Source of the DNA: Medicago truncatula | Taxonomy: Eukaryota; Streptophyta; Magnoliopsida; Fabales; Fabaceae | Assembly: GCF_003473485.1 (NCBI RefSeq) | Contig: NC_053047.1 | Span: 31,916,972 to 31,980,971, forward strand | Length of the DNA stretch: 64,000 nucleotides | Reading direction: 5' to 3' | Shown here: piece after piece, positions 3,753 to 63,832 of the stretch | How the letters are laid out: each line of letters begins with the position of its first letter | How positions within the stretch are numbered: the first letter of the stretch is position 1 | Program-made: the position numbers and the translations under genes | The notes under the pieces: model-generated | Seen by the model: the letters and a program-made list of their open reading frames with translations, nothing else | What the model was told of the DNA's origin: nothing | Database searches by the model: none

Positions 3753-3795
3753 GTATTATATTTGGTTTGTCAAAAAAAAAAAGTATTATATTTGG
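3753..3795 (+). mobile_element. A-tailed micro-insertion with 13-bp TSD
   Basis: The 17-nt insert tttgtc plus 11 A (3766-3782) is flanked by exact 13-bp direct repeats gtattatatttgg. It looks like a LINE copy truncated almost to its tail. Confidence 0.75.
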
Positions 3796-3901
3796 ATTTG
3801 GATGTTCAATAGAAACTCTAAACTAATGCAACAAACTAAGATAGATCAAAAGTGCCTCAGAAAATAAACAAGTATGAGTGTAAGGCACATTTTTTGTGTA
3901 G

Positions 3902-5584
3902 ATTTATTTGACAGCTTGAAGTGTAACAAAAGAATGTTTGAAGAAAAACATGGTGAGGATGTGAAAGGTCTCATTGCCCTTTACGAAGCATCGCAACTAA
4001 GTATTGAAGGAGAAGATCATCTTAACGATGTAGGATACCTCTGTTGGGAACTTTTACATGCATGGTTGTCAAGAAATCAAGAACATAATGAAGCTTTATA
4101 TGTTGCAAACGCTCTTCAGAATCCACTTCATTATGGCTTGTCAAGATTTATGGATAGAAACATATTCATCCATAATTTGAAGGCTGAAAAGGATTTGATA
4201 TGTTTAAAGGAACTTGCTAATATCAACTCCAGCATAGTTAGGTTCATGAACCAGAATGAGACCACTGAAGTTTCCAAGTATGTTTTTTAGTTCAAAATAT
4301 ATGTTAGACTTTATATTATAATAATTCAAATTTTACATAGGGGTCACTAACGTAATTATTCCATCAATTAATAGATGGTGGAAAGAACTTGGACTAGCCA
4401 AGGAGGTGAAGTTTTCAGAGTATCAACCTCTGAAATGGTACACATGGCCCATGGCATGCTTTACAGATCCAAACTTTTCAGAACAAAGGATTGAGCTCAC
4501 AAAACCCATCTCTTTGATTTATGTTATTGACGACATTTTCGATGTTCACGGGACATTGGATCAACTTACAATATTCACAGATGCTATTAACAGGTATTAA
4601 ATTTTGAACAAATATATACATCTCATTTGTTAGTTAATACATATACACACACGTATACCTCTGCATGGATATACAAATTTTATATTGATGTATCACTCTG
4701 ACTACACTTACTATGAAATGATTTTTGATTCAGGTGGGAAATCACTGGCACTGAGCAACTTCCAAACTTCATGAAAATATCTTTGAATGCACTTTACGAC
4801 ATTACCAATAATTTTGCTGAAAAGGTCTACAAGAAGCATGGATTCAACCCTATAGACACTCTTAAAAAATGGGTATACTAACTAACCGTCTTTTATATTT
4901 TATCATATATATAAATTATTTTTTCAAATGACTGAGTCTATATAAAACTATTTGGGTGAAACAGTGGATACGCTTATTGAACGCTTTCATGGAAGAGGCT
5001 CGTTGGTTGAATTCTAGTCATTTGCCAAGGGCAGAGGATTACTTGAACAATGGAATTGTGAGCACCGGAGTCCATGTTGTGCTTGTACATGCATTCTTCT
5101 TGTTGGATCATGTTAATGGTATAACAAAGGAGACAGTTGATATCTTGGATGAAAATTTTCCAAATGTCATATATTCGGTGGCAAAAATTCTTCGTCTCTC
5201 TGATGATTTAGAAGGAGCTAAGGTAAGAAATATGTCTCCCAAATATATCTTGGATGATTATATTGTTCTACCGATTACTCAACTGTTAAATGTAAAGTTC
5301 TAATGATAAGAATTATTATCCATGGATGAATGTAGAGTGGAGATCAAAATGGTCTTGATGGGTCATATCTTGATTGCTTCATGAGTGAACACCAAGATAT
5401 TTCCGGGGAAGACGTGCAAAGACATGTTGCTCGCATGATTTCAAATGAATGGAAATGTCTCAATCAAGAAATTCTGGTTGCAAATAAGTTTTCATCATCA
5501 TTTTCCAATTTTTGTATCAATGCTGCAAGAATGGTTCCCCTCATGTACCACTATAAGAGCAACCCTAGCCTATCTAATCTCTAG
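3902..5584 (+). pseudogene. 5'-truncated terpene synthase (TPS-b, ocimene-synthase-like)
   Basis: Five exons join in frame: 3902-4277, 4375-4593, 4734-4872, 4965-5222 and 5336-5584, with GT..AG introns, giving about 413 residues. A full plastid monoterpene synthase is near 580. Exon 4375-4593 carries the Mg-binding DDxxD motif as [10 protein letters not shown]. The second metal motif reads LSDDLEGAKSGDQ, so the usual Ser/Thr and Glu positions of the NSE/DTE motif are Gly. The C-terminus (MVPLMYHYKSNPSL, then a stop) is typical of the family. The first two exons (RRX8W region and transit peptide) are missing: the first retained exon starts with a split codon after an AG, but nothing upstream fits and the copia remnant lies 570 bp away. 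I infer a 5'-truncated, probably non-functional gene. The retained exons have no stop or frameshift, so the loss may be recent. Confidence 0.85.
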
Positions 5585-7056
5585 GAACATGTCAAGTTAT
5601 TGATTAATGTTGGTGTTGGATGCAATTAGTACAGTTTCAAATATTGTAATCTGTTGTTTATGTACAACATATATTGATTTGTAATTTCAGTTGGGCATTA
5701 TTGTTTTCATGGTTCTTAAGTTATTTCATTAATATTGTTATTATCGGATCTACTTTTGGGACTACACACTATAATGAAACTATATGCATTGCAATTTGGA
5801 CGTTCTTAATCTTATACCTAATACATGGTAGTACGGTACACCTCACAAATTGAGATGTATTGGTACTTTTGCTCCATAAATTTATAAATTAACGATAATT
5901 TTATGAAATAAAATGCTATTTGTCAATATTTATATTTTAGTAAACATCATTTCATAAGAAAAAAACTTCATTTTATTGTTTATAAGAATCATATTAAATT
6001 TTTAACATTTTCTCATTAAAAATAATCAATATTCTTTATTATGAGTAATATAAATTCAAAAAAAGTAAATTTTATTTCTTCAAAACTTTTGGTAAATAAG
6101 ATTTAATTATTATAATTGTCAATGATAGAAAAAAAAAAACATTATTTTTCTTCAAAAAAAAAAACAACTCATTTAATTATTAATTTAACGATATGGTGTA
6201 TTGCTGCACTCAATTTTTTAGGAGCTCTTAGTTTAATAAATAAATAAAACAATATATATAGGGCTGCTAATTTACACATTAAAAACACTAAGTTGTAAAT
6301 TAGCGAGCTACACCCACTTAAAAAAACTCAGGTGTACGTTAGTAACCTACACCCACTTGATTATATACACTCATTTTTATCAATTTTATCAAATTTTTTT
6401 ACACTCACCTCACTAATTTACACTCACTCCATCATTCCAAATATTGTTTCTATTACATGTTTTGTACTTCAAGCATGTCATTGTCTTTTTTGTTTCTTCC
6501 AGGTGAGAAAAAGTGCACCTTTTTATTTGGATAAAAATATCTTTCGTCTTTATTATTTAAAACTAATAGCTTGAGAGTTATTTTAGTAATTTTCATTAAA
6601 AACATATTTGTTAATTTGCACCAATTTTCTAACTTAGACCCACTTTTATTTTATAACAAATAGCTTGAGGGATATTTATTAAACTATCATTTACTTTAAA
6701 TTGGTTTGCACCGATGGATATTGATTTTTTTGTCCGAAAATTTCTAACTTGGTCCCACTTTTATTTTATAACAAATAGCTTGAGGGACATTTACTAAACT
6801 ATCTTTTACTTATAAATTGATTTACACTTACGGATATTGATTTTTTGCCCAAATAAAAAGGTGCATTTTTGCTAACTTGCACCTTCATGTTTTTTATAAA
6901 GAGAATAGCCTCGTAAAAAAAAATAGGCTTTTAAAAAAAATATAGGATTTTGGACTCACTTTTTATTATTCTAATCATACCTTTAAAAAAAAATATAATA
7001 AGGTTATATTATTGATATCATTAAAAATATAAACACGATTTGTTAGTTTTAATATC
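5585..7056. other. Non-coding, with a local tandem duplication
   Basis: AT-rich intergenic DNA. Two tandem copies of a roughly 117-bp unit lie at about 6622-6860, each with ctaactt-cccacttttatttta and caaatagcttgaggga blocks and ending at a ggatattgatttttt block. Nothing else was recognised. Confidence 0.6.
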
Positions 7057-7446
7057 TTGTATGCCGAGTTGATGAGTTTGCTTAAAGGTATGTTGTTGTG
7101 TTGGGAAGAGGGGTACCGGAAAGTTCAATGTTTTACTGATTCCTTGGAAACTATTAGACTCCTTAATGGAGGCAAACACATTATATCATCTTTATGGTAA
7201 TGAGGTTGTTTTGTTGCGTAAGCTGCTGCAACGTAATTGGCAGGTGCATATATCTCACATCTACCGCGAAGGTAATTCTTGTGCGGACTGGTTTGCAAAG
7301 ACGGGTGCTAGAAACAATGCCGACCTCACAGTTTGTAGAAACCCCCCTACAGATTTAGGCCCCCTTTTAATTGCTGATGCTAATGGTACTCGGTTTGTGA
7401 GACCTTAGTTTTTTTTTTCCTTTTTCCTTTGTAACCAAAAAAAAAA
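7057..7446 (+). pseudogene. LINE 3' end: RNase H-like domain fragment plus A-tail
   Basis: The reading starts YAELMSLLKGMLLCWEEG and continues to QCFTDSLETIRLLNGGKHI, then a frameshift near 7190 leads into NEVVLLRKLLQRNWQVHI and HIYREGNSCADWFAKTG, ending RFVRP-stop at 7408. The E, DS and N-x-x-AD positions are those of the RNase H-like domain at the end of plant L1-type LINE ORF2. After the stop comes a T-rich 3' UTR ending TTTGTAACC and ten A. That 3' end resembles the ends of several micro-insertions in the window. The copy is 5'-truncated and frameshifted. Confidence 0.8.
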
Positions 7447-7669
7447 TTTAAAAGTTACAAACATCTATACATATACTTTAACTCAAAATAAAAATAAATT
7501 TTTCATAAAAACATCTTTCAAAATTTACAAACATTAGCGCTCTATAAACATAAATTGTGGAAAGAAGGACACAATACAATATAAATATAATTGTTTAGTT
7601 AAAAAAAAAAGATAAATAGTCATTTTATTCTCCGAATATATAACCAATAGTTGTAATGGTCTCTCAATG

Positions 7670-8685: not shown

Positions 8686-8716
<31 letters not shown>

Positions 8717-9302
8717 TACGGTGTGACAATTTATATAACTAAATCTTTTTTTTGCGATGAAACTAAATCTCTTTCTCTATAGGATTTTCATTTTTGTGTT
8801 TAAAAGAAGATTTGAGGTGAACATAACATTAATTCGTGATATTTGGAGATATATTTGTGTAGAATTTTTTTTTATTCAATGAAGATGATGAAGATTCAAA
8901 GGAAGAAGATGAAGATGATGAACATCTTCATCATATTTCTGAATTTTTTTCATTTTTAATAAAAATATATTTTAAAAAATAAAATTATGTTTTTTTTAAT
9001 AAAAAAAAATGAGAAAAATGATGCATATGTGCTTTTATGAGAGATAAAAGACCTAAACGGAAAAAAAAATAAAGATAAAGGACCAAAGTGTTACAAATAA
9101 ATAAGATAAAGGACCTCTAATGTAATCTTGTCTATAACTAAATAAAAATTAAAAGTATTAAAAGTTACCTTATGATTAAAATTGATTTTTTTATAGAAAA
9201 AATTGGCTTATTTGTTTGACATTTAATGTTGTCAATGTATATTACATTTTGATTGGTTGATATCACAAGGGAACAAGATAGGGTAATCTAGAAAAAAAAC
9301 CT
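7670..9302. mobile_element. 1.6-kb fold-back MULE-type element, 9-bp TSD
   Basis: The left part (about 7670-8170) and right part (about 8515-9302) are inverted copies. The gatatcaaccaatc and gtaatatacat blocks near 7720 and the gctgcagttt block near 8110 each have reverse complements on the right, near 9250 and 8525. The element is bounded by direct repeats CTCTCAATG at 7661-7669 and 9303-9311, fitting a Mutator-type 9-bp target duplication. Short ORFs inside it do not look like proteins. The right arm contains an (ATA)n run near 8690 and a micro-insertion. Transcription would give a long double-stranded RNA. Confidence 0.8.
8737..8770 (-). mobile_element. A-tailed micro-insertion with 10-bp TSD
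   Basis: Insert tttttttgcgatga (8747-8760; reverse complement tcatcgc plus A7) lies between exact 10-bp repeats aactaaatct, inside the fold-back element. Confidence 0.65.
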
Positions 9303-9544
9303 CTCTCAATGTATCAAAATTTTAAAATAGTATTTAAATATACACTTTGTTAGTCAAAATAGTGTTTGACCTTAAAATTGTCTCTCAATGCTCATAATAA
9401 CTCCTTTTATATATGAGCAAAATTGTCTCACAAAAGTAAAAGTAAGAAGGTATTTATTTTATTTTGTTATGCAAGAAAGTAAGTAGGTATTTATAAGCCT
9501 TAATATGAAAATAAGTAAATATATTTGAAAAAATAATATGATAA

Positions 9545-12650: not shown

Positions 12651-12659
12651 CTGATCGGC

Positions 12660-15033: not shown

Positions 15034-18000
15034 ATGGACCACCACGTTCCTCGTGAAATAGGTCAGGATTCTCGGGTGGCGAAGACATTTCGTGTTGAAG
15101 GTCGTGATGCGGATAGAAGATCTCCTCTTCATTCAGTTTATCGCATGCCATTATCTTCAAATGATTCTCAGGCAGATCATCCAATTGGAACTGGTAACAG
15201 GATAGAATCAAGGGATCTGAAGGATAATAGAGATATCCGTAGCGAGAAGGATGTGTGTCTTGAAAGTCGAGGAGATGACAGCAACAAGGGCACCAGACAT
15301 GAAAGGGATAGTCATAATGATACAAAAGGTGATATTAAGACAGACAAGGTCACATTTGGTTTGGTTAGCAGCCCCTTGAATTGGAAAGACTCGAAAGATT
15401 TTAGGGGAAAAAGATATGGTGATTCTCCTGGTGGGAGTTTGGATTCCCGGCATATGTCACATGGAAATACACCAACAGAAGTTGGAAAGGAGAATCCAAC
15501 CACAAAAGATAGGGACTCTTTGGAAGCTCATGAGACTGTTGGTGAAAGCAAAATTGATTCTAAAAGTGAGGATAGATTTAAAGATAGAAAGAGAATTGAC
15601 GGGAAACATCAAGGTTGGGGAGACAAGGAAAAAGAGAGAAGTGATCGCAGAAACAGTACACAAGTTAACAATAACATTGGTGAAAACAAAGAATCTGCCA
15701 AAGAAGATCAAGCAGCAGAAAAGTTGGAGAAGGAGAAGAAAGATATTCCAAAAAACAGAGAAATTTCAAAAGAACACATGAAGAGGGAATCATGGAATGG
15801 AATGGAGAAAGAAGTTTCATATAATGAGAAGGAAGTTGCTGATGGATCAGTAAAAATTCCTAAGCACGAAACTGTGTTACCAGAACAGAAGAAACACAAA
15901 GATGTTGACAGCGGTAAAACTGTTGATGGTGAAACTAGAGATAGGAGGAAAGAACGTGACAATGATTTAGAAGGAGATCGACCTGATAAGCGCTTTAAAT
16001 CTGAGAAGCAGTCAGAAGATGGATTTGCTGGTGAGGAAGAGACCGGAGAGAAAGAGAGTGAAGACCATAGTTGTAATGTTCAGCATCGTAAGAGGATACA
16101 AAGATCGAGAGCTAGTCCTCTTGTCGCCAATCTTGAGTCTCGTTTTGGACCCCACGCCCAAGACAATGAAGGGTATTTTCTTCCTCTACCTTTTCATTTA
16201 CTTATTTGTGAGAAGTTAGTTATCCATTATATATATTTTTTTTTCAAATACGCTTTTAATATATACAATGTACTCAGTATCTTTTAGTTATAAAGTCTAG
16301 AATGACTTTATAAAGTTTATATTTTTTAAGTCATTTTTTTATTTTGTTTCTCAATTTTCATGAGAGGACTCTGTCTACTTTTTTGCAAGTTAAGGCATTT
16401 CATAGGGTTATCACAACATTAGTCAACAATTGTTCATGGATATTTTCATAGCCTAAAATATGTAGGAAGAACAAGTGACCGTGTAATGTTTAGAATAGGT
16501 GAATTTTTCAGCATACAAATCAGTGTCGGTAAGTAAACACCTTAAAAAGAATATATTTATATTGGTGTATCAGTAATGTGTATTCTTTTTGTATCGCAAG
16601 TTCTTCTAATATCTTATTTTAATAATAAAAAACAATACTTACAAAATCTAGTTACAGACTTACATCTAGCTGTCAAAGTATATATATATCTTAATGTGGT
16701 AACTGTTGCACACTGACAAGAACTTAGTTTAGGCTGTTTCTCGTGTCAAATTGATATCTTTATTCCTCTATACTGCATTACTCTTTGTGCCTTGAAGCAT
16801 CCTGTTAATAGAAGTCGATGCCTCTTCTTTGATGCTTTGATTTAATCCTACTGTTTTGGTTTTTTGATTAATTGTCCTTTGTTCTATTTTATTTTTTATT
16901 TTTATAATTACTTCCTTTCACTTATTTTGCAGGTCTCAAGGTATTCTTTCATATTTTGTTCAGTAGCTCAAAGTTTTTAGGCATCTTGTAGATTCGTGCT
17001 TTCATGAATTAGTTTGGGATGTCAACAGGCACCGCTTTATTTAGCCAATTGGTTTACAATGATATTCTCTCTCCTTCAGATTTACTCATCTCCTTTGTAC
17101 TACTCCCTTTTGAATGTCCTGTGTTGGGTGGTAGGGTATTAATATAATATGCTATAATTGTACCCAAAAAAAAAATATATATAATATGCTATAATATGCT
17201 TGTCAATTATAGTACTTATTGGTGGAATGAAAAATATTGGAGCTAGATATCTGTATTATTTCAATTGCTTGTCCATTATATGTAAGTTCTGCTATTTCAG
17301 GTAAAGCAGGAGTATCACATGTTACATATAAAGTTGGTGAAAGTGTGCTAGAACTGATCAAGTTGTGGAAGGAATATGAATCATCACAATCTCAAGCTGA
17401 AAAAAATGCTGAAACCTCTAATGATGGCCCCACTCTTGAAATTCGGATACCAGCTGAGAATGTTACTGCTACAAATCACCAAGTAAGATCAAACTTTGTT
17501 ATCGTAATTTAGATGTGTGCCTTCGTTTTTGGGGACATGGTACATTTATGACTGTTTTTACTGCTTCCTGTTGCCGGTGATTCCTTTGTTCTTATTTTGC
17601 TTCATTTCGGTTTGTTTCTTCTTTTCTTCTGTTGTTGTAATCTGGTACTAAGTAAGTAACAATTATATTTGTTGTTTGCTTAAGAGAAGTTTGAGAATTT
17701 TAGTTCAGTAGCTCATGATGGTGTTCTTGAATTGATTTCTGCTTTTATGTTTCATATAAAATCACTTTGCATGTCATTTTCCGCTGCTATACTTTTCAAG
17801 GTCTGCTTTATCTTATGTCTTGCATGAATGCAAATCTTAATTCCATTTTATAACGTTTTGTGTGATTATCATGGACAATTTTTATTGACTCTTCCCTACC
17901 TTTGGGAAGAATGCGGAAGTACTTGAGTTCATAAAATGATTTGTTGAGATGAAAGTCTTTATTTTATTTTTTTGCCATTTTTTTCTTACACCAATTCTTG

Positions 18001-21000
18001 AGAGTTAACTTTTTTATATTTAGGTCCGAGGTGCCCAGCTATGGGGGACTGATGTGTACACATATGACTCAGATCTTGTTGCTGGTAAGTTTTATTACAG
18101 AAAGCATGCGGCCAGCTTTTGATTGCAAATGACCAGTGTTGGCTTGTTGAAAACTTGAAATTAGTACTGATGTGAAAATTTTGTTGGACAGTTCTCATGC
18201 ATACCGGTTACTGTCGCCCAACAGTTTCTCGTCCTCCCTCGGCCATACAAGAGTTGCGCACATGCATTAGGGTGCTACCTCCGCAAGATTGTATGTCCTT
18301 TTAGATCATAATAAAGATGCACTTTTTCTCCATCATCTACTAATACCCTTGGTCACCAAAAAAAATCTACTGATACACTGGCACTGCTGTCTTCAATAAC
18401 ATTTATTGTGTCCAGTGTTAAAGTATGGGAAATGCTAACAAATGCCCTTAGGTAAGGGCACTTGTTAAGAAGCTTAAAAGAGAAAGTTTATCTTGGGAAT
18501 GATGTATTCAACACCTTGAAACTTTAAAATGAACTTTTTCTACATCAAATTTATAATTCATTTCTATTTTTGAGTTCTTAACTAGTACCCTAAGGGTACT
18601 TGTTAGCATAACCCTTAAAGTATTAACTAGGAATAACTTTATGGTAAATTATTATAGTATGAATCAGTCAGTATATAACTTACGTGACGAGTAAAAGAAA
18701 CTTGATTCAATTTTAATGTTTTTTAAGATTATATTAAGTGGAAATTTTGTGTTGAGTTCCACCAGCAGAATAAAGGAGAAAGATAAAAAACAGCCGGAAT
18801 GACATATGGCTATGGATTTTCCTTTTTAATTTTGATGGAGAGCAGATGGAAGCTAACGAGAGAGAATGCATTTCAGGAAATGCTGAAGACAATGTTTTGA
18901 AATTTTTCAGAATTTTCAGAAATCTAGTTTAGAATACATTTTCAAAAACTTCCAAATATTTTCTCTAATTTTTATTTTATAAGTGGAAATGAAAACATGA
19001 AACACTAGAAATAAAAGGGACCTTTAGAGCCTATGAAGTTCTCATTTCTGTTTTTCTTTTTTATTTCCTTTTTGCAGTTTTAATTACCAAAATGCTACCT
19101 TAGTTTACAAAGAACAGGTAAAAACAATATAAAAAGTTGTTTTGCCTTATTTCTATCAAAAACTTCGAAACAAAAAATAGTGAAAACAGGGTGAAGCATT
19201 TGTAATTAAAACTGATAATGTAAATGATAACAGAAAAACGGTTTTTTGGAACCGAACAGCATTCAGGTCCTTTTTTTTATCAAGTGTTATCAATGAAGTC
19301 GAGACTTGGTGTTTGAATTTTATAGGAAAGAGTTTACTCTTTTAAAGTAGTCCATGTATGATGTATCAAAAGAAGATAGAGGTACTTGTATCATAAAAAG
19401 GAGATATCTATTGCACCAAGCACCTTCTTGGAACTTATTTAATTGTTTTTTGCATAATGTCAATATAATATTATTTTCTTCTTCATAGTGAGTAATCAAG
19501 TAGTTCTTTTGATTTCCCTCCATTGAGTAATCGACTAGTTCTGTTGATTTCCCTTCATTGCAGTCACTGATATGCTTTATCATTTAAGCTCTATTCGGAT
19601 AATCTAAAGTTGTTGATTCTGTGCATTATCAGGCTATATATCCACCCTGAGAAACAATGTGCGTTCCCGAGCTTGGGGTGCTTCAACTGGTTGTAGTTTT
19701 AGAGTTGAGTGGTGTTGCATTGTGAAGGTAGAGTAAAAAAGGCCTTGTGAAATCCCTTATCCTTTGAACTTTTGTATACTGAAATTATGCCATATTTTCA
19801 TTGCAACTTCGTCTACTCTAGATGCTTGTATTCGGTCTGTACTGTTGACATGTTCACATTCATACCTGTCTTTGTACGAAGATGTTCGTTCTTACTTAGA
19901 ATAGATAACTACATTAATTAATTTTTAAAAACATTGCGACTCAGACTGTTTTTATTTCTTTGGTTTTCAGAAAAGTGGTGGAACTATTGATCTTGAACCA
20001 TGCCATACTTACACATCAGCTATTGAGCCCACCCTTGTACCAATGGCTGTTGAGCGGGCAATAACTACCAGGGCTGCAGCTTCGGTTTGTCCACTATTAT
20101 CCATTAAACAATTTTTTTTGCATTCACAATAGCATTCTACATCATCATCTTATAACCTGTTTGTGTGATGCCCAAACTGTCATTAGCAGTGAGGAAAATT
20201 GTGTGCTTGTTGGAATTTTTAAGGTGGAAAAAGTTTTTGTTTGATTTCGTATAAGGGACTTGCTAAAAATACTTCACATTTACAATTTAAAAGTGATTTA
20301 CTTTATCATCTAAACAAAATCAGTTCTTCTAACATATCTTGAAAACATCATTCCTAAGCTCTAGTCATTTTTTTCAACTTCATTTTTTCAAAATGAAACT
20401 CTCTTCAAGTAAATTATTTCATAATCAATTTTACCAAAATCTAGCACAAACAGAACCTAACTTAGTTTCATTTGTTCTTCAGAATACATCGCGGAAACAA
20501 AGATTTGTAAGAGAAGTCACGATTCAGTACAACCTCTGCAATGAGCCCTGGTATGTAGCTTTTAGTTGGCGAAGTATTGTCTACTATAGTAATATTGTGT
20601 TTTATCATAGAACAAAAACAAAAACCAAGCTTATGGAATTTTTTAAATATTTGAAGCTATGTTCTGTTTTGGATGATAATGTTTCTTATTCCCCCTGTTG
20701 GATAGAGGGTGCCACAGTTTTGTTTTTGTAGCTTGTTTTTAGTATTTAATAATAATATTATTATAATAATCATCAGGATCAAGTATAGTATCAGCATTGT
20801 TGCTGACAAAGGACTAAAAAGGCCACTCTATACATCTGCTCGCTTGAAGAAGGGAGAAGTTCTGTATCTGGAGTCACATTCATGCAGGTATGTTTAACAA
20901 GATTCTTGACCAAAATTAGTGATGTCATGTCAACTGTATTTTATTTCCCTTTTAAAAAGCTTATCTTCATAAGCTATCAAGTGCAAGATTCAACTGCATT

Positions 21001-25908: not shown

Positions 25909-25988
25909 ACTAACATCATTCCTTTGCAGTCTAGTTAACTATACAAAGACTAACATCATTCCTTTGCAGTCTAGTTAACTATACAAAG
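25909..25988. repeat. 40-bp exact tandem duplication
   Basis: Two identical 40-bp units (starting actaacatcattcctttgca) at 25909-25948 and 25949-25988, between the Myb-partner ORF and the ALP1-like start. Perfect identity implies a recent slip or duplication. Confidence 0.85.
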
Positions 25989-30980: not shown

Positions 30981-31020
30981 GAATAATTAGTTGTTCCTTT
31001 AAAAAAGAATAATTAGTTGT
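30981..31020 (+). mobile_element. A-tailed micro-insertion with 14-bp TSD
   Basis: The 12-nt insert tccttt plus A6 (30995-31006) lies between exact 14-bp repeats gaataattagttgt. Confidence 0.75.
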
Positions 31021-31070: not shown

Positions 31071-31117
31071 AAGTGAAAATAACATTTTTTTTTTTTTGGT
31101 GAAGAAGTGAAAATAAC
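31071..31117 (-). mobile_element. A-tailed micro-insertion with 13-bp TSD
   Basis: Insert at 31084-31104, reverse complement cttcacc plus an A-run, between exact 13-bp repeats aagtgaaaataac. Confidence 0.75.
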
Positions 31118-31142
31118 GTTTATAAATACAACTTATCACTAT

Positions 31143-31262: not shown

Positions 31263-31900
31263 GTAATGTCTTGGTATATTAAAGGAACGAATATATCGAG
31301 ACATATAATAAACACTATAATGAGATAAATGAAGCAAAGAGTGATTTCAAATTTTAAAAAAATGAAGTAAATTTTTCTTTTGTTTACAAAATGAATTTTC
31401 TTAAATCCTTTTGGTTATTTTTGTTTTTCGAGTAGAAATTCTTTTAGTTTTGTTATTCACTTAAATAAACATAAATGTCCATAATTATTTTCTAGCCAGT
31501 AGTCAAATCATTAGCCATAATAGACAAAAAAAGAAACATTTTTAAATAAATAGACAAAAAAATATTATTAGTCAAAAACAATCAAAACACTTTATTTTAT
31601 TTTTCCAATTTTATCAAAAATAAGTCTATTATTTTTTTCCACAACAAAGACCAAGAAATTCAGCTTGACGTCGTTCATTTCTATCCTCAAATTCTCGAAC
31701 GCATAATTTCTTCTATTCCCGTAAATGGTTAAAAACAACCAACTAATAAACGATGAAAATTACACTCAATCTTCTATGATTGATTATTATCATTCTAACC
31801 TTCTTCACCTTTTCATCAAAAGAGAGAAAATAAGAACGAAAAAAAGTGAAGGAGATAATCCAATTTGTTCATAGAACATCGCACAAACCTCAATTTGACA

Positions 31901-32929
31901 ATGTCAGCACCAAAAAAACCCAAACTCCCTTTTCCTTTGAAGACTCGCCTTTCGATTTCATTGATTATGACTTTAACGGACGCTGCATGTCGATCTAATG
32001 GTAGTGTTAACCGCCGTCTTCTCAACTTTTTAGATAACAAAACATCGGCTAAAGCAACTCCCATTAACGGTGTTTCCACAAAAGACATAACTGTTGATGC
32101 CGAAAGTAAAATTTGGTTCCGTCTCTTCACTCCCACCGGCATCAATGCCAGCGCCGGAGGAGGTAGTAACACCGAAACCACATCCCTTCCCGTGGTAATT
32201 TTCTTCCACGGTGGAGGATTCACGTTTATGTCTCCCGCTTCATTATCCTATGATACCATTTGTCGGAGATTCTCACGGGAATTGAATGTCGTCGTTGTCT
32301 CCGTCAACTACCGCCGCACACCGGAGTATCGTTACCCGACACAATACGAAGATGGAGAAACCGCATTGAAATTCCTTGACGAAAACAAATCCGTTTTACC
32401 GGAAAATGTTGATGTGTCAAAATGTTTCCTAGCTGGAGACAGCGCGGGTGCAAATTTGGCACATCATGTTGCGGTTCGGGCTTGCAAAGCAGGGCTCCAG
32501 AGAATCCGGGTAGCCGGGTTGATTTCAATGCAACCGTTTTTTGGTGGCGAGGAGCGAACAGAAGCAGAGATTCGCCTTGAAGGATCGTTGATGATTTCGA
32601 TGGCGAGGACAGATTGGATGTGGAAGGTGTTTTTGCCAGAGGGTTCGAACCGAGATCACAACGCAGCTAATGTTAGTGGGCCGAATGCGGAGGATTTATC
32701 CCGATTAGATTATCCAGATACGCTTGTTTTTGTGGGTGGGTTGGACGGGTTATATGATTGGCAAAAGAGGTATTATGAATGGTTGAAAATATCTGGAAAA
32801 AAAGCTCAGTTGATTGAATATCCAAACATGATGCATGGTTTTTATGCGTTTCCTAATGTTCCCGAGGCTTCTCAATTGATTTTGCAAATCAAAGATTTTA
32901 TCAACAATAGAGTCTCCAATTTTATATGA
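31901..32929 (+). CDS. CXE18-like carboxylesterase (copy 1)
   Basis: Single-exon, 342 residues, alpha/beta-hydrolase fold of the plant HSL/GID1-like carboxylesterase family. HGGGF (oxyanion hole, His103), GDSAGAN (nucleophile Ser181), VGGLDGLYD (Asp282) and MMHGFY (His312) supply a complete catalytic set. The N-terminus has RSNGSVNRRLLNFLD, a feature shared with GID1, but GID1 gibberellin receptors have lost the catalytic His, which is present here; so I call an esterase, substrate unknown. I chose ATG at 31901 because it aligns with the start of the paralogue at 37022 (MSxPxKPK). No signal peptide, so cytosolic. Where copy 2 and relatives have GGFDPLND, this copy has GGLDGLYD. Confidence 0.92.
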   Translation: MSAPKKPKLPFPLKTRLSISLIMTLTDAACRSNGSVNRRLLNFLDNKTSAKATPINGVSTKDITVDAESKIWFRLFTPTGINASAGGGSNTETTSLPVVIFFHGGGFTFMSPASLSYDTICRRFSRELNVVVVSVNYRRTPEYRYPTQYEDGETALKFLDENKSVLPENVDVSKCFLAGDSAGANLAHHVAVRACKAGLQRIRVAGLISMQPFFGGEERTEAEIRLEGSLMISMARTDWMWKVFLPEGSNRDHNAANVSGPNAEDLSRLDYPDTLVFVGGLDGLYDWQKRYYEWLKISGKKAQLIEYPNMMHGFYAFPNVPEASQLILQIKDFINNRVSNFI

Positions 32930-33277: not shown

Positions 33278-33319
33278 AAATAACATTCAATATTTTTTTT
33301 TTAAGAAGCAAATAACATT
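33278..33319 (-). mobile_element. A-tailed micro-insertion with 10-bp TSD
   Basis: Insert 33288-33309, reverse complement gcttctt plus A10 plus tattg, between exact 10-bp repeats aaataacatt. Confidence 0.6.
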
Positions 33320-33439
33320 TAATGTTAATTTAGGAGAATGCTAACCAATGCCTTAAGGGCATTAATTTAAATACAATGTGAATGATCTTCATTATTATTA
33401 TGACAATGTTTCACATTTTGAAAGTTTATACTTGAATTT

Positions 33440-33560: not shown

Positions 33561-34710
33561 TGATCGTTTTCCGCATTGGTAGTATAGTGCTCTAGAATAT
33601 TTGTAAAGATTATGACAAAATGGAATGCTATCAAAATTGATTAGGTTGAAATATAATACAATTAAACCTTGTGAAAATGTTGAAATTAGAATGAAATATA
33701 ATGCATTGGAAGGTTGTGAAAATTGTCAAGCTTATATCATCAGCATGCACAATGTTTTTATCAAAATGCAATTTAATCTTAGTAAGATCAGATAGAAAAT
33801 ATAAAGAATATGAGTTGGTTTGAGACTTTGGAGTGTGCTTTTCTCAAACTCTCAGTTCGATTCTTTCTGGTACCAATTTGATGGCTAGTTTGATTTCTTT
33901 AAAAGAAATATAAAGCAAAATTATAGTGCGACTATGAAGAATTTGAGACTTGATCTTCGTTCTCTAATGATCAAGAATATTATCCATCATTCTTGAAACT
34001 TTGAGCTCGTATTCATCAACTTAATTTGCAAGTGTGTCGAAGGGAAAGAGGGCTGCTCAACAAGTCGTGAGTCCTAAACAATCAAGCGATTAATCGTCCT
34101 GATCTGAGTGATAGCTATGTGCTTTTAATTAGTTAATTAGATTTCTATTCTATCCTTTTTATTTATTTTAAGGGAAATGCTAACAAGTGTCTTATTATTA
34201 TTTTAATTATTTATTTTGATGCATCTGTGAGAAATTGATTTACAGAAGGGTGCAAATAACAATATGGTTATGTGGGTTGATAATTGGTTTGTGCTCCCTT
34301 GTCACTAGTAAATTTCAATATACACCTACATGCTTTCCCTAAACAAAAACAAAAAAAATGCTTTGCTATTGACCACACCTAGAATTTTTTAGAAAATCGC
34401 AATTGGATTTTCCTTCTATTTTTCTCTCCTCAAACCTATAATGTTCTAGGAGGTTATAATTGTTGATGAATAACATGATGAGTCTCTAAGGGAGAAAATA
34501 ACTACTATTTTGAGGTTCATGGATAAAAACGGATGTATACAAAAACAACTTTGTGACTATCATCACTCTTAAAAAATTAGTTTTTGATGTTCTTTCTCGA
34601 CATGGTCTTGATGATTAAGATATCCATGGAAAAGGGTATAATAGTTCTAGTAATTGGAGATTGAGTTGGAATTTATTGTCAGCAATATTTCTCAAAAATG
34701 TTTTTATGCT
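33561..34710. other. Intergenic, nothing recognised
   Basis: AT-rich DNA with no coding signal, apart from a possible micro-insertion at 34330-34364 (ccctaaac plus A-rich tract between 7-bp repeats atgcttt), which I regard as weak. Confidence 0.5.
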
Positions 34711-36041: not shown

Positions 36042-36913
36042 GTTCTTAAAAGATATTAGGAAGAATGGATGAAGTTATGTTACACGTGGGGACTTTAGTA
36101 TTGCTTATAAGTTTATTAAATTATTTGAGTTCATAATGATTAAAAAATTATGGATTTTTTTTTTTTAAGAAGTTAAACTAGTCCGCATGAATTGACATTG
36201 AAGTAAATCGAACATCTTGAAAATAAGCATACTTCAAAGTCTTAAGTTAACATCGTCAGACTAATTCAAGTGACTTTTTTTTATGGGGATTACTGATTTT
36301 CTTAACCACGGATTGAGTTGAAAATATAATTAAGTGAAGAAAAAAATAATTTAAAATGCATAATTTATACAAGATATTTAATAAATTATAAGATATAGTA
36401 TTAAAAATTAATAGATATCTAAAATTATAAGAAATATTAAATATACAAAAAGTTGAGAACATTAAGGTTTTTTTTCAAAAAAAGACGAAAGTAAACGATA
36501 TTTAAATAACACATAAAGAAAATATGAAAAAAAAAAATGAGAATATAGGAGGATGCAATCGCAGCCAATAAATCGTTGATAGTTGATGAGAGTGTTAAAA
36601 CAAAGTTGTAGACAATAATTCAATATTTTAAAAAGAAATTTAATCGAAGAATCATAAATTGGAAAGAAAAAAAAATAAAATTACTGTATTAAGGCCAACA
36701 AATTTAGATGTACTCATAATTGAATCTTGACTAATACTAGTACAAATCTGACGCAAGAGTCAAAATCATTAGTTAGAAACAATTTAATCATTTTCCTAGA
36801 AAAAAAAAAAGAAACAATTCAATCACAATCCATAAATGACCAACAAATTCTTCATAGACCCCACTTTCCTTTCCTTCCTCAACCAAAACTCATCTAGTCG
36901 GCACCTCCTTCAT
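36042..36913. other. Intergenic, upstream of esterase copy 2
   Basis: AT-rich; contains one A-tailed micro-insertion (36776-36825). No genes recognised. Confidence 0.5.
36776..36825 (+). mobile_element. A-tailed micro-insertion with 15-bp TSD
   Basis: Insert ttttcctag plus A11 (36791-36810) between gaaacaatttaatca and gaaacaattcaatca (14 of 15 identical). Confidence 0.75.
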
Positions 36914-36921: not shown

Positions 36922-37021
36922 CGGCTCAAAAAACTTATAACAACAAAAAATCACTTATCTTGAATAATCGATTATTTATTCTCTTTAGTTATATCACTTT
37001 CTTTACAACCTCAAAACAACA

Positions 37022-38053
37022 ATGTCATCACCAAACAAACCCAAACCCTTTCTCTCTTGGAAATCTCGCATTTCAATTTCATTTATAAGCGCTTTATCAG
37101 ACGCATCACGTCGCTCTAACGGCACCGTTAACCGCCGTTTTCTTAATTTCTTAGATCGCAAATCTTCCCCTAACGCCATCCCTGTTAACGGCGTTTCCAC
37201 CAAAGACGTTATCGTTAACGCAGAAGATAACGTTTGGTTCCGTCTCTTCACACCCACCGCCGCCGTCAACTCCGCCGGAGAAGATAACACCGACACCAAA
37301 ACTGCCACCCTTCCGGTGATCGTTTTCTTCCATGGAGGTGGATTCACCTATCTCACCCCTGATTCATTTGCTTACGATGCTGTTTGCCGGAGATTCTGCC
37401 GGAAAATCAATGCTGTTGTCGTCTCCGTCAACTACCGTCACACACCGGAGCATCGGTATCCATCGCAATACGAAGACGGAGAAGCTGTTTTGAAATATTT
37501 GGACGAGAATAAAACGGTTTTACCGGAAAATGCTGACGTGTCAAAATGTTTCCTCGCCGGAGACAGTGCCGGTGCAAATTTAGCACATCATGTTGCGGTT
37601 CGGGTTTGTAAAGCGGGGCTCCGGGAAATCCGGGTTATTGGGTTGGTATCCATCCAGCCGTTTTTTGGAGGGGAGGAGAGGACGGAGGCGGAGATTAGGC
37701 TCGAGGGATCACCCTTAGTGTCGATGGCGAGGACGGATTGGATGTGGAAAGCGTTTTTACCGGAGGGATCAGACCGGGATCATGGCGCGGTTAATGTATG
37801 TGGGCCGAACGCGGAGGATTTGTCGGGTTTGGATTATCCGGATACGCTTGTTTTTATTGGTGGATTTGATCCTTTAAATGATTGGCAAAAGAGGTATTAT
37901 GATTGGTTGAAGAAATGTGGGAAAAAAGCTGAGTTAATTCAATATCCAAATATGATTCATGCTTTTTATATTTTTCCTGATTTGCCTGAATCTGGTCAGT
38001 TGATTATGCAAGTCAAGGATTTCATCAGCAAAGTGTCCAATTCTAGATTATGA
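37022..38053 (+). CDS. CXE18-like carboxylesterase (copy 2)
   Basis: Single-exon, 343 residues, tandem paralogue of the gene at 31901. Catalytic elements: HGGGF (His104), GDSAGAN (Ser182), GGFDPLND (Asp283) and MIHAFY (His313). The N-terminal [17 protein letters not shown] resembles the GID1 lid region, but the His is kept, so an active esterase is expected rather than a gibberellin receptor. Nearly all of [17 protein letters not shown] and [19 protein letters not shown] is identical to copy 1. Copy 2 has the family-typical GGFDPL where copy 1 has GGLDGL. No signal peptide. The two copies are separated by about 4.1 kb filled with MITEs. Confidence 0.93.
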
Positions 38054-40015: not shown

Positions 40016-40317
40016 TTCACTAAAAAAAAGACTAAAAGTTCAAAAGAAAAGCTAATAGAAAGCTAATAATAAGATTAAGATAGAAAAAACTTGGTCGCCC
40101 CACTCTCTCTGTCGGCGCATGCATCTCACTTGCCGGCTTTGCCCAACGAAAACGCGCCATGTGGCCTGACCGGGACATAATTCAACATGTTTAATTGCAT
40201 CATCACCTCTTTCATCCACATCATCTTTCCCCTCATTTTTAAAGTTGCTTTCAATAGGTCCATTGTAAATGGTCTAAGTCTAACTTTCAAATCAAGAAAA
40301 ATTTGATTTCAAAAACG

Positions 40318-40480
40318 GCTGGGGATGATAGGATGACTTAGTTTATTTCCAATATCTTTTCACTTGTAGTAACGAGCAATCTGTTTTTGACCTCCTCTCA
40401 CATCATCATGTTTGACCGTTTTAAGAATTAATATGTTGAAACAATTTGGTTATTGGATCGGATGCTATGAAACACATATA
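40318..40480 (+). repeat. Esterase 3'-flank repeat, resumed part of copy 2
   Basis: ggggatgataggatgactta, then taacgagcaatctgttttt and catcatgtttgaccgtttt match 44752-44880 and 63648-63800. Confidence 0.6.
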
Positions 40481-43100: not shown

Positions 43101-43543
43101 TAAGGCTCTGTTTGGTAAAAAGAAGCTATAAGCTAGCTGATAGCTGATAAGTTAGCTGATAGCTGGTAGCTGATAGCTGATAGCTTATAGCTGAAAAACT
43201 TGCTTATTAAAAATAATGTGTTTGGTAAAATTAGCTGTTGAAGTGGCTGATAAATATAAAATGACATAAAAGGACATGTTTTTTTTTAATATACATATAG
43301 ACGCACACATTTTTTTTGTAATGTATTTATTTTTTAATATTTTTAATTATAGTTAAATATGTTTTTGGTCCCTATAAATATTCAAACTTTTGGTCTTAGT
43401 CTCCATAAAAAAATTCTTCGACCTTTAATCCTAAAAAAAATTCACTAACAATTTTGATCTCTGCTTAATGAGTCCCAAAAATAAGAGAAATGTGGAAACA
43501 AAATGTGAGGTAGAATATATAAAATTTTACAACGTACAATAAA

Positions 43544-43588
43544 CTAGTTATTTTTTCCTTTAAAAAAAAAATAGGCTAGTTATTTTTT
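43544..43588 (+). mobile_element. A-tailed micro-insertion with 13-bp TSD
   Basis: Insert ccttt plus A10 plus tagg (43557-43575) between exact 13-bp repeats ctagttatttttt. Its ccttt-A end resembles the insert at 30995. Confidence 0.7.
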
Positions 43589-43641
43589 GTGTGGTGTACG
43601 ACAGGTTAGTTATAACAAAATATAAAGCATTTCCATAAAAA

Positions 43642-43646
<5 letters not shown>

Positions 43647-43712
<66 letters not shown>
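43647..43712. repeat. (TA)n microsatellite
   Basis: About 33 TA units inside the Tourist-like element. Confidence 0.95.
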
Positions 43713-43714
<2 letters not shown>

Positions 43715-44160
43715 TGCTCCTTAAAAAAAACGGCATTTTATTTAAGGGAAAAAATGGGGCGGTTATAAAGATGAACATGGGTACTTGTTTAATTAAAAAA
43801 ATAATTAATTAAATTAATAGGGTTAAAGTTGGAAGAAAATATAAAAAGCTACCAGCTATAAGCTAAAAAGCTACTTGAAATAGCTTTTCAAAAAACGCTA
43901 TAAGCTCATGAAAAAAGCTTGTTACCAAACACGTCACGTTTTCTTCTAACGAGCTTATAAGCTAATCCAACAAGCTATAAGCTAGCTTTTTTGTGTTACC
44001 AAACACAGCCTAAGTCTCTTTAAGACGTTCCGCAGTTTTATCTCAATGGTGAATACACTCTTTGCACAAAGAAAATCCATCAAACTAACACCGACAAACT
44101 CTTATCGCTCGGAATACACAAAATGGGGAAACTCAATTTTTAACTATGATTTGTTTTTTT

Positions 44161-44539: not shown

Positions 44540-45080
44540 ACTTCGTCATACTTCAATTCATAATATGATATGGCAAATCGGATGATTAGTTTGCTTATGC
44601 ATGGTTTGGAATTGATATATGTGTTAGAATAATTGTTGTTACTACCCCACTTGTGCACAAATAGTCAATTACTTGGTTTTGTGTCAGAGGTAGGTGATGC
44701 CAATTTTGGTTTAAAGATTTTTGAACAAGGTTGGTTGGGAAGATAAAACAGTTGGGGATGGTTGTATGACAATTTATTTCCAATATTTTCTCTCTTGTAG
44801 TAATCGCCAATCTGTTTTTTTTACCTCCTCTACATCATCATGTTTGTCCGTTTTACAAATTAATATGCTAAAACAATTTTGTAGGGATCTAAAGTGGACC
44901 TAGGTCAGCTCTAGAAGTGATGTGGCAGAATACGACGACGATTCTTGAAGGGTTTACATGTAAACACTTCGATGATAAGTTAGTTTGTGAATGAGGGTTA
45001 AAGGTTTTGTGATTAGAAATGTGTGTACTTTTCTCTTGTGCACATGTCCTATTATAGGACAACCTTTAGGGTTATCTGAT
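44540..45080 (+). repeat. Esterase 3'-flank repeat, copy 3 (uninterrupted)
   Basis: Colinear with 38330-42130 and with 62774-64000 but without their insertions. It therefore supplies the empty sites at about 44710 (ttttggtttaaag), 44806 (caatctgttttttt), 44873 (aacaattttgtaggg) and 44896 (ctaggtcagct). No esterase coding sequence precedes it. Confidence 0.7.
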
Positions 45081-51479: not shown

Positions 51480-54400
51480 TCATTGTCCCGATGTTGACGA
51501 CTCCACAATATCATTGTTTTCTCCTCCACCTGCTACTAAAGGTTCCTGGTTCTTTCTAACATTCTCCTGCAAGTGTTTTACCCACTCCCAAGTTGTTGGG
51601 TCCTCCTGAAAATAATATCAAATATGACAATCAACTCTTTCAAAAGATATTGTTGTTGTGGATAAAAACAGGTCTTGTAACATTAAATCATATCCTATCT
51701 ATATGAAACAAGTTATGAATCAAATTTGTATATAGTTATGTGAAAGGAAATACTTACACGAACGCGATTAAGAAAAATGGTGTCTCTAAACACACTAGGA
51801 AGAGAGTTTGCTAATGCAATGCCAGCCCTGCTTTAATATGAAAGAAGTTTGATTAGAAATTAGAAAATTACACACGCATTCATACTAGTTGCACACATTG
51901 TTAAGGGAAAATGCATATTCAAGAGCATTTAAGATGATGGAATTGTTCAACCAACCAGCGATCATTAGACAAACGAGCATAGCAAGGAATAATATACTTC
52001 AAAAGACGACATGTAGGTTGCTTGTCAAGACTTTCGGACATCATGTCCAAAACTCGACGTACTGCAAAAAACCGCTCTGCTGTAGCACAAACGTAGGCCA
52101 AACCATCATCATCGAACAAAATTTTCTGGAATATAAAGGTTGCAGTCTACAGAGATAAACAAGAAAATATATATACTTAAATTTAGAACAAGATAACTTA
52201 CATATGAAATGGTGTTAATCACATACCCAACAAAAATGGAACACATAAAATTAAAGAATGGAATAGCAAAAAATAAAATTTCATTTACCAAAATACTCTT
52301 TAAAAAATAAAAATAGAGAAACTAACAGTTTTTGATATTTCATTGCCGATCTCCATGTTGCTCAAGCAGAGTGGAATTATCTCACTTAAAATAAGGTAAC
52401 CCAAGACTTCTTTGGTGTTAACCTGTGAATATCAAGTATCAACAAAAGGAAATTATTACAAGTGATATTTTTTTTTTATAAGCAAGAAGAGAGGACAGAC
52501 ATCAAGAGGTATCATCGACATCCCAGCTAGGTTGGCACCTCGAGAAACCTCCATCCTATGCCGCCAAACTCGAAAAAAAATAATCTAAAATCATGTAAAA
52601 GTTTGAATAGAAGAAAAAAATTAATTAATTAATGACGTATATGAATTCATCCTAACAAGTTATATTTGTAACTCTCAGATACTAAATATATGAAACTTTT
52701 ATAAGAATGAATTTGAAACTTAAATAGATATAATTGAAATCTGTCAAAAAAAAAAAAAATATATATATAATTGAAAGCACACCAAGAGCATGATAAAACT
52801 GCAAGTCAACCAATTATTTGGCTCATAACTAGCTACTTTCTATAGTTTTAAAAATAATTAGTGATTAGTGTTTTTTGTTTGAATATGATCAATAATTTAT
52901 TGGTACAAATTTTATGTAAATGAAACATTCAAGGCACAATCAAACATTGTAAGTTTTTTGTGACGATATTTTTTGTAATTAAAATGACTTTATTTTCATG
53001 TAATACCTTCACTAAAGCACCAATGACTCCAAGACTTGCAAACCTTAAATACTCAAACTGTGGTGACTTTTCTTTTGTTTTAAGGAAGGGATACAAATAC
53101 AAAGGCATGCTAGCTGCAAACAAGAAAATGTAAGTTTAAATAATGTAAATATAAATTAAGAGTAATTATGATGAGTAAAAGACTTGACGTTACCATTTAG
53201 GAACAACATCCTTGTTTCAGAGTGAGATGCCAAATACTATAGTAAAAACATGATAGAAAAGTGTAAGAGGAATTAATAATTTCATATTTTTCATATATGA
53301 AGAAAAGCAAGAAAAAAGACTTTATCATCTGCGGATGAACTCGTTTGTAATTAACATGATTGTTTTTAAGGTATATTTGGGGGTATAATAATAAAAGTGT
53401 TCATATACTAAACACATGATTCAAAACTTGTTAGAATAAACTCATCTCACCTGAAGTAGTGCAAGAACGTTACACACTCGAGTTGATTGTGCTAGAGTAA
53501 GAGTCGGTGGTAAAAGAGTACAATATATTGAAGTTATTTCCTGAAGGAAAAAAAAAAACTACTTAGTGTGTGCAGGGCAACCAATAAACACTTTTTAAAA
53601 CATATGAATGTTTAAAAATTAAAACTATCAAAGAACAAATAGTATTAATAAGTTAATTTAAAAACAGTTAGAGAATAATATTGCTCATATAATATATAAT
53701 TACATTCATATATATCATACCTGTAAAAGTATTGCAATAGTGCCAAAAGAATTCCATAATAAATGTGCAAGTTCTTGAGATAATTCATTCCTCTGAAATA
53801 TAAATGAAGGAAAATACAAAATTATCTCAATTGTAAAAGTTCGAGAAACATCATCAACTAAATTGTAATAAAAAATGCCAAAACATAATAAATCTATGTG
53901 ATACACATTTGAGATAGTAATAGCCATTTAATATAAGTAGATTTTAATGTCGTCAACATCATCGCACCATCTTTGTCCTCGTGAGATTAACTCAGTTGGT
54001 AGGGACAAATACATAATATATACATGGGCCGGGGTTCGAACCTTGGACATCCCACTTCTCCACATTAAAAATGTGTGAGCTTCAGCCATTAGGCTACCTG
54101 ATAAAAAAAATAAAATAATTGCACCACCTTTTACCACTATTGTTTCTCTCTTTACTTTCCATCATCTTAAGTATCAAACTCTCATTTTCATCCTCTTCTA
54201 TTTCTAATAATCTCTCTTTCTTACCCCATTTGTATACCTCTCAGAGTCATGGAGTATGATATAAACATTGCTCATGAAACACAAAATGATATGATATCAA
54301 ACCTTCTAAAATACATCTTAACTCTTTTAAGTCTATAACACATAACAAGATATTACTCACATATAATTAACAATGACTAACATACATTAAAACTGGAACA

Positions 54401-57881: not shown

Positions 57882-57937
57882 TACTGAAACAGTGCGCGAG
57901 CAGGGTTCGAAAATGCACATAGTTTCTGTACTATTGC

Positions 57938-58471: not shown

Positions 58472-58539
58472 GAGGGTATTTTAGTAAAGTACGCAGGGCG
58501 TGCGAGAATGGGAAGGGTGGGAAAAGCGATGAGAATCCC

Positions 58540-59765: not shown

Positions 59766-59787
59766 ACTAGACAAATACATAAGTAAA

Positions 59788-60283: not shown

Positions 60284-60289
60284 TTATCA

Positions 60290-61470: not shown

Positions 61471-61599
61471 ACTCAAAACAAATTAGTTAAGTAACTTGAT
61501 TTAAATATCTTGGTTGAATCAAATACATTATAAATAATTTAAATATAAAGGTTTAGTACAGGCCTTACTTAAGTAACTTGATGTTTATGTAAACACATG

Positions 61600-62700: not shown

Positions 62701-62808
62701 ATGCTTTCTGAACTTAAAAAACTGAAGTTATTTAAATTTCTCCCTCTCAGATTATAGTTCACGCGCACTGTTTGAAGGAGGTGTAGGTGATGACAATTTT
62801 GGTTAAAA

Positions 62809-63599
62809 TGAAGCACGGATAAGGGGGTTCGAACTTTTGAATTTTACTTGATAATTAACACACACCAGGTTTGATCCCTATAAAATTTAATGCTAATTTT
62901 AGTCCTACATATTATTGCGGTATGTAAAATAGTCCCTAATTTGAAAGTTTTTTTTACAAAAAATCGATACTTTTTAAATCTCTAAAATAGAAATACAAAT
63001 AGGTCCTAAAAGTAAATAATTTTTTTTGTATAAACTAAACTTAAAAACATGTAATTTTATAGGGACTAAATATATGTTTTAACCATCTTTTTTAAATTTA
63101 TCATGTGCCTGATGTTTTAGCTTTATCTCTTTCCATTTTATTTTCTCTATTTTAATAGTCAGAATTTATATATTTCTTCCTCATCAATCCTCAACTCATG
63201 TTGGTCCAAGTCCAAATCTGACACATTCATACAGCTATACGTACATTTGTATATCATACACATACTTTAATAAGTGGGTATAGGGTGCATGCTAGCATTG
63301 AAAACTAATATAATATGAGGTGAGAGAGACAAGCTTTGGGCTAGTGGTGCAGTGCATGGTGCTGGATATACACTTGAGGGGATTCAAGATAGATAAAATA
63401 TAGGATAGTAGGTGTAAATTAAAAAGTTGAGGGGGTTCAGCTGCATCCCCTGGATGTATGCTGGCTCCGCCCCTGGACACTGCTAATAATTTGAAAAAAT
63501 CATATAATTAAGTGTATTTATATGTATCGGTGTTGTGTTGGACATGACACGTGTCTGACACAGAGACATGCCTAATCCGAAGAGTGTCCGTGCTTTACA
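62809..63599. mobile_element. 791-bp element with TGAAGCACGGA ends, 8-bp TSD and empty site
   Basis: Left end tgaagcacggat and right end gtgtccgtgctttaca are imperfectly inverted. Direct repeats GGTTAAAA at 62801-62808 and 63600-63607. The uninterrupted copy at about 44710 reads ttttggtttaaagattttt. The right end carries the GTGTCTGACAC repeat; the inside also holds retroelement-like tracts (62870-63110, and ggctccgccac near 63465). Confidence 0.75.
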
Positions 63600-63700
63600 G
63601 GTTAAAAGATTTTTGTACAAAGGTTGGGTTGGAAGATAAAAACAATTGGGGATGATTTTATGACTATTTATTTCCAATTTCTTCTCTTCTAGTAATCGCC

Positions 63701-63745
63701 AATCTGTATTTTACCTTGTTACCAAAAAAAAATCTGTATTTTACC
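63701..63745 (+). mobile_element. A-tailed micro-insertion with 15-bp TSD and empty site
   Basis: The 15-nt insert ttgttacc plus A7 (63716-63730) lies between exact 15-bp repeats aatctgtattttacc. The related locus at about 44807 has a single, slightly changed copy of the target (aatctgttttttttacc) and no insert. Confidence 0.85.
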
Positions 63746-63790
63746 TCCTCCACATCATCATGTTTGTCCGTTTTACAAATTAAATGCTGA

Positions 63791-63832
63791 AACAATTTTG
63801 TAGTGTAACCCAAAAAAAAAACAATTTTGTAG
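63791..63832 (+). mobile_element. A-tailed micro-insertion with 13-bp TSD and empty site
   Basis: The 16-nt insert tgtaaccc plus A8 (63804-63819) lies between exact 13-bp repeats aacaattttgtag. The locus at about 44873 reads aacaattttgtagggatct with no insert. Confidence 0.88.

What the first reader, a model, noticed from the sequence alone, without database searches (positions are those of the whole stretch)
3753..63832. Swarm of tail-only micro-insertions with target-site duplications
At 13 places (3766, 8747, 17159, 18347, 30995, 31084, 32963, 33288, 36791, 43557, 52740, 63716, 63804) a 12-24-nt insert made of a few bases and an A-run sits between direct repeats of 10-17 bp. Several inserts share an end: ttgtNacc-A (63716, 63804, 17159), ggtcacc-A (18347), cttcacc-A (31084), t-gtc-A (3766, 52740), ccttt-A (30995, 43557). 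The LINE tail at 7425-7446 ends tttgtaacc-A10. Long TSDs plus an A-tail are the signature of target-primed reverse transcription, so I infer L1-type LINE events that aborted after copying only the tail. That is about one per 5 kb, mostly invisible to repeat annotation because they are too short to mask. Two weaker candidates lie at about 1241-1277 and 34330-34364.
Basis: partly seen in the sequence, partly recalled or inferred. Interest (0 to 1): 0.88.

Follow-up and report, generated by a model that had tools for sequence, protein, structure and literature searches.

The report
Tiny tail-only jumping-gene insertions
This plant window carries tiny inserts, a few letters plus a run of A's between short duplicated sequences, that look like jumping-gene copies which stopped just after copying the tail, often at nearly the same point.

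Summary
A scan returns 12 of the 13 listed sites; the 13th is an exact 17-bp repeat. In 264 kb (window plus 20 ten-kb pieces) there are 54 X-N-A(6+)-X structures against 12 in the same DNA read backwards. Of 8 candidate sites with an informative repeat copy elsewhere, 6 (4 of them listed window sites) have an empty copy with one X; 2 weak scan-only candidates do not. Target sites carry two or more A's at the nick in 24/54 versus 12%. Some insert ends equal LINE 3' ends. Target-primed reverse transcription ending just past the poly(A) tail is the best reading. New: N is mostly 5-8 nt (33/54); TTTGTC-A10 occurs 2047 times against 113 for the reversed pattern, and of 20 systematically sampled places 13 were tail-only and 5 carried more of a presumed source. 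Corrections: the 43557 insert was carried in by a multi-copy repeat, and most templates remain unassigned (matches beyond 3 nt do not exceed background). What sets the stop is open. Poly(A)-only L1 insertions are known, as rare events, in humans.

The parts
3749..3798 (+). tail-only insert TTTGTC-A11 between copies of GTATTATATTTGG (longer with mismatches)
   Evidence: scan; no other copy of the flanks found
8737..8770 (-). tail-only insert TCATCGC-A, 10-bp X
   Evidence: scan; one search returned no row for it
17142..17195 (+). tail-only insert TGTACCC-A10 plus TAT, exact 17-bp X
   Evidence: missed by the scan
18335..18379 (+). tail-only insert TGGTCACC-A8, 15-bp X with 2 mismatches
30981..31020 (+). 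tail-only insert TCCTTT-A6, exact 14-bp X
31071..31121 (-). tail-only insert CTTCACC-A13; N equals the end of a truncated LINE in L013
32952..32989 (+). tail-only insert ATTCTCTCC-A, 11-bp X, 23 bases after the end of the ORF 31859-32929
33278..33326 (-). tail-only insert GCTTCTT-A10, X with mismatches
36775..36825 (+). tail-only insert TTTTCCTAG-A11, X with 1 mismatch
43538..43588 (+). tail-only insert CCTTT-A10 inside a multi-copy repeat; carried in with the repeat
   Evidence: 4 filled and 8 empty among 12 fetched copies
52724..52776 (+). tail-only insert TCTGTC-A14
   Evidence: empty copy L078
63701..63746 (+). tail-only insert TGTTACC-A9, exact 16-bp X counted with two leading A's
   Evidence: empty copies at 44727-44884 and 40311-40450
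63790..63832 (+). tail-only insert TGTAACCC-A10, exact 14-bp X counted with leading A's
   Evidence: empty copy at 44809-44984
44727..44984 (+). repeat copy with empty sites matching 63701 and 63790
40311..40450 (+). second repeat copy with an empty site matching 63701
7163..7446 (+). LINE 3' remnant: RVT_3 end, then 3' end TTTGTAACC-A10

Best explanation
Each unit is the product of target-primed reverse transcription by an L1-type LINE machinery that copied the poly(A) tail plus only the last few (typically 5-8) bases of the template RNA, after which the short cDNA was joined to the target, leaving a duplication of about 10-17 bp. Shown: direct repeats, A-run beside the second repeat, empty sites, A-rich nick side, a few N equal to LINE 3' ends. 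Inferred: the enzyme, the order of steps, and that the narrow N reflects a stop or pause soon after the enzyme leaves the poly(A) tract, resolved into the genome, rather than truncation at random.
For: 54 vs 12 mirror control; 0.05 per shuffled window; empty copies at 6 of 8 informative sites; two or more A's at the nick in 24/54 vs 12%, p about 1e-9; pyrimidine before the tail in 35 of 38 vs 77% background; CTTCACC equals the end of a 501-bp truncated LINE with 16-bp duplication; CTCTC and TCTTC equal sampled LINE ends; TTTGTC-A10 2047 vs 113, 13 of 20 sampled with abutting repeat; N 5-8 in 33/54.
Against: N matches LINE ends above background only at 3 nt. Only 2 of 34 N of 4-8 nt equal one of 35 LINE ends in full, 4 with three further ends. 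The mirror control implies roughly one false hit in five; two scan candidates proved not to be insertions. The TTTGTC source was not shown to be a LINE. No new event was observed.
Confidence: 0.85

Rival explanations
1. Staggered double-strand breaks repaired by fill-in leave a short tandem duplication with filler that happens to be A-rich.
For: Gives X-filler-X; known in plants and animals (recalled; related papers seen only as a listing).
Against: No reason for the A-run to touch the second copy: 54 vs 12 when reversed. Recurrent ends: TTTGTC-A10 2047 vs 113, TTGTNACC-A10 270 vs 14, CTTGTTC-A10 273 vs 17.
Confidence: 0.05
2. Same LINE enzyme, but the templates are mostly SINE or host mRNA tails.
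For: Most N are not matched to LINE ends beyond 3 nt; pyrimidine-rich N would also suit mRNA ends (recalled).
Against: Recurrent ends in hundreds of copies; CTTCACC, CTCTC, TCTTC equal LINE ends.
Confidence: 0.3
3. The 5-8 nt stop is set by a hairpin near the LINE 3' end that blocks the enzyme.
For: Hairpins with base 7-14 nt from the tail exceed shuffles (z -4.0 to -8.3); 7 of 26 ends at -6 kcal/mol or lower vs 0.8 expected, 1 of 26 at 15-20 nt (two of the 7 are near-identical ends). In 3 of 4 folded forms of the TTTGTC source the stem leaves 5 nt before the tail.
Against: The ends CTTCACC, TTTGTAACC and CTCTC, matched by or close to tail-only inserts, show no such hairpin; strong-hairpin ends have linkers of 7-10 nt and no clear tail-only partner was found.
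Confidence: 0.2
4. Chance direct repeats around A-runs in an AT-rich genome.
For: Two scan candidates are not insertions.
Against: Shuffles, mirror control and empty copies.
Confidence: 0.02

Closest known systems
Poly(A)-only ('pA') insertions attributed to human LINE-1 (PMC4859970, Table 1; rows 58-124 seen)
   Same: Poly(A) inserted at an L1-type nick site with no element body.
   Different: There four rows (121-124 of a table numbered to 124), three with kb deletions and no duplication; here many, with regular duplications and a recurrent 5-8 nt before the tail.
5'-truncated plant L1-clade LINE insertions
   Same: A-tail, target duplication, A at the nick; some shared 3' ends.
   Different: Element body absent; narrow 5' limit instead of a spread of lengths.
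Plant L1 3' hairpin ends (PMC3747384, section 4.3 and passages read)
   Same: A subset of LINE ends here has a hairpin close to the tail.
   Different: The link to tail-only inserts is not shown.
Break-repair tandem duplications with filler (recalled)
   Same: Direct repeats around extra bases.
   Different: No polarity, no recurrent tail.

Membership tests
L1-type target-primed insertion | target-site duplication with an empty site | tested here: met
   6 of 8 informative sites; the 2 failures are weak scan candidates
L1-type target-primed insertion | A-tail at the 3' side only | tested here: met
   54 vs 12 mirror control
L1-type target-primed insertion | nick at a T/A-rich site | tested here: met
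   24/54 vs 12% with two or more A's
L1-type target-primed insertion | 3' end equal to a LINE | tested here: inconclusive
   exact for a few; as a group only at 3 nt
L1-type target-primed insertion | made by LINE ORF2 protein | not testable with these tools
   LINEs abundant in the genome, activity unknown
human-type pA insertion | tail without element body | tested here: met
   N 5-8 nt in 33/54
break-repair duplication with filler | no strand polarity | tested here: not met
   54 vs 12

The most novel reading that the evidence does not exclude
In this plant, copying only the tail plus about six bases is a major, perhaps the main, outcome of LINE-type reverse transcription: a defined pause just after the poly(A) tract is resolved into the genome again and again, leaving tens of thousands of short scars (about 40,000-70,000 if the 264 kb are typical) that keep the last bases of their source and mark nicks that went no further.
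Probability: 0.5. Interest if true: 0.85.

Novelty: new variant of a known kind. Interest (0 to 1): 0.72.

Why it matters
If the numbers hold genome-wide, these scars are a large, easily overlooked class of insertion mutations and a record of LINE nicks that failed. The narrow 5-8 nt range turns 'what holds the enzyme at the end of the tail' into a question that can be tested by counting and by a simple reaction in the test tube.

Tried and rejected
Chance: rejected (shuffles, mirror control). Break repair: rejected on polarity. One smooth truncation curve: an insert-length scan (score 9 or more) gives 38 vs 7 at 10-29 nt, 2 vs 0 at 30-39, 14 vs 5 at 40-99, 73 vs 73 at 100-1599 and 63 vs 36 at 1600-3000, so the short class stands out, but numbers are small and longer copies are harder to tell from background. 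Hairpin block: left as a rival. A first LINE-end test with 18 ends gave 36/63 vs 24% at 3 nt; with 35 ends on the stricter set it fell to 31/54 vs 36%. The L006 site was first listed as having an empty copy; one search shows its copy keeps the sequence, as for window 61111, so both were dropped; an L004/L009 pair at 77% identity failed the stricter span rule and is uncounted. Paper searches (9, 10, 21 and 70 empty) listed no title on tail-only insertions in plants; the library lacks most subscription papers and the search cannot take 'poly(A)', so I do not claim absence from print. The name Medicago truncatula A17 is recalled from contig lengths and untested.
Full report
What was claimed. Thirteen short inserts, a few bases plus an A-run between direct repeats, read as LINE insertions that copied only the tail.

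Where we are. The window is contig 6, 31,916,972-31,980,971, of a 429.9-Mb genome in 42 contigs.

Is it there? A script searched both strands for X, up to 20 bases, an A-run of 6 or more, and X again, and searched the same DNA reversed (not complemented). Reversal keeps composition, runs and tandem repeats but flips polarity. Window 10 vs 1; 20 ten-kb pieces at fixed spacing on contigs 1 (14) and 2 (6), 28 vs 5. Dinucleotide shuffles average 0.05. With laxer settings the scan returns 12 of the 13 listed sites among 19 window hits, control 4; 17159 is an exact 17-bp repeat. A stricter form, in which A's do not count towards X, gives 54 vs 12 in 264 kb.

Are they insertions? I joined the flanks of the 63 candidates and compared them with the sequence in hand, and searched the genome with ten window sites. 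Eight candidates have an informative copy. Six have an empty copy with one X: window 43538, 52724, 63701, 63790 and two in L013. Two weak candidates, L006 and window 61111, do not: the copy keeps the sequence. In one search, seven of the ten sites matched only their own place and one (8737) gave no row; since only 40 candidates were scored, most of them copies of the 43538 repeat, this does not show that other copies are lacking. Site 43538 is instructive. Of 12 fetched copies of its repeat, 4 carry the insert and 8 do not, two of the 8 with a small deletion beside the site. The insert entered one copy of a repeat that then multiplied; it was brought to the window, not made there. A TTTGTC place on contig 1 (L113) likewise shares its flanks with one in L018 on contig 2.

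What made them? The A-run lies beside the second repeat. The target has two or more A's on the nick side in 24 of 54, against 12% at random positions (p about 1e-9), and A's preceded by T in 19 of 54 against 13%. Repeat cores, without A's, are 11-16 bp in 34 of 54. The base before the tail is a pyrimidine in 35 of 38, background 77%. These are marks of target-primed reverse transcription of the L1 type (general knowledge).

Which template? From the zf-RVT search (150 of 6220 candidates scored) I fetched 3' flanks of 54 LINEs and assigned a tail by eye in 35; in 19 none was assigned. Two inserts of the sample, CTCTC and TCTTC, equal such ends over their full N, out of 34 N of 4-8 nt. CTTCACC (window 31071) equals the end of a 501-bp truncated LINE in L013 with an RVT_3 domain (E 3e-10) and a 16-bp duplication. 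The window LINE ends TTTGTAACC-A10, close to the TGTTACC, TGTAACCC and TGTACCC inserts; I take this from sight, not from a test. As a group N matches the 35 ends above background only at 3 nt (31/54 vs 36%, p=0.002), not at 4 or more (9/54 vs 13.5%); the mirror-control set reads 6/12 and 3/12. Most templates are therefore not assigned.

What is new. N is narrow: 5, 6, 7 or 8 nt in 33 of 54 (10, 9, 9, 5); the control has 4 of 12 there. Genome-wide, TTTGTC-A10 occurs 2047 times vs 113 for the reversed pattern, TTGTNACC-A10 270 vs 14, CTTGTTC-A10 273 vs 17. I fetched every fifth of the first 100 listed TTTGTC-A10 places (20 of 2047, all on contig 1). In 13 a repeat abuts TTTGTC and scores above all 19 pairings with other sites' flanks; 5 share a longer upstream end; 2 are unresolved (L101, L105), the latter with a repeat that does not beat the mismatched pairings. 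So tail-only to longer copies is 13 to 5 in this sample. The longer end counts 525 vs 0, but at up to two mismatches and only four A's, so it is not like for like with 2047. Shorter stops: non-T before TTGTC-A10 counts 839 vs 150, but 69 of the 100 listed, by my count, are CTTGTC, probably another end; non-T before TTTGTC-A10 counts 643 vs 57. In 10 of the 13 clean cases the repeat ends in T beside TTTGTC, so a base or more of overlap at the junction is possible and N may be slightly longer than it looks. The pattern itself excludes N below 6 in this sample.

Why there? Among 26 LINE 3' ends judged distinct, hairpins with base 7-14 nt from the tail exceed shuffles (z -4.0 to -8.3; 7 of 26 at -6 kcal/mol or lower vs 0.8 expected; 1 of 26 for bases 15-20 nt away). 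Two of the 7, L043 and L086, are near-identical. This is in line with the plant L1 hairpins of PMC3747384 (passages and section 4.3 read). In 3 of 4 forms of the TTTGTC source the stem leaves 5 nt before the tail. But CTTCACC, TTTGTAACC and CTCTC ends have no such hairpin. A human L1 structure paper (PMC10830416, passages only) describes contacts along the poly(A) tract and an anchored stem-loop; a pause on leaving the tract would fit, but that step is mine. I prefer such a pause, cause open.

Known or new? Poly(A)-only insertions by L1 are known: rows 121-124 in Table 1 of PMC4859970 (rows 58-124 seen), three with deletions and no duplication. The kind is known. Abundance, regular duplications, recurrent 5-8 nt and the 13-to-5 excess are what I did not see described in the searches named under Tried and rejected.

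Limits. 264 kb of one genome, places on contigs 1, 2 and 6; no accessions; TTTGTC source unnamed; about one false hit in five by the mirror control; extrapolation to 40,000-70,000 is arithmetic only.

Noticed in passing
L013:2993-3166 (minus strand): A 136-bp insert with a 19-bp duplication and A-tail that looks like a tRNA-derived SINE (by eye; no RNA search run).
   Followed up: no
43480-43760 and its copies: An AT-rich repeat with dozens of matches in the genome, whose subfamily carries the tail-only insert; its class was not determined.
   Followed up: partly
31859-32929 and 36989-38053: Two similar ORFs in tandem that look like carboxylesterases from their motifs (recalled, no family search); a tail-only insert lies 23 bases after the first.
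   Followed up: no
LINE 3' flanks L035, L037, L043, L047, L059, L083, L086: Strong hairpins 7-10 nt from the poly(A) tail.
   Followed up: partly
25909-25988: Perfect 40-bp tandem repeat, two copies.
   Followed up: no
whole genome: CTTGTC-A10 is the commonest form (69 of 100 listed) among non-T TTGTC-A10 places, probably a further end family.
   Followed up: no
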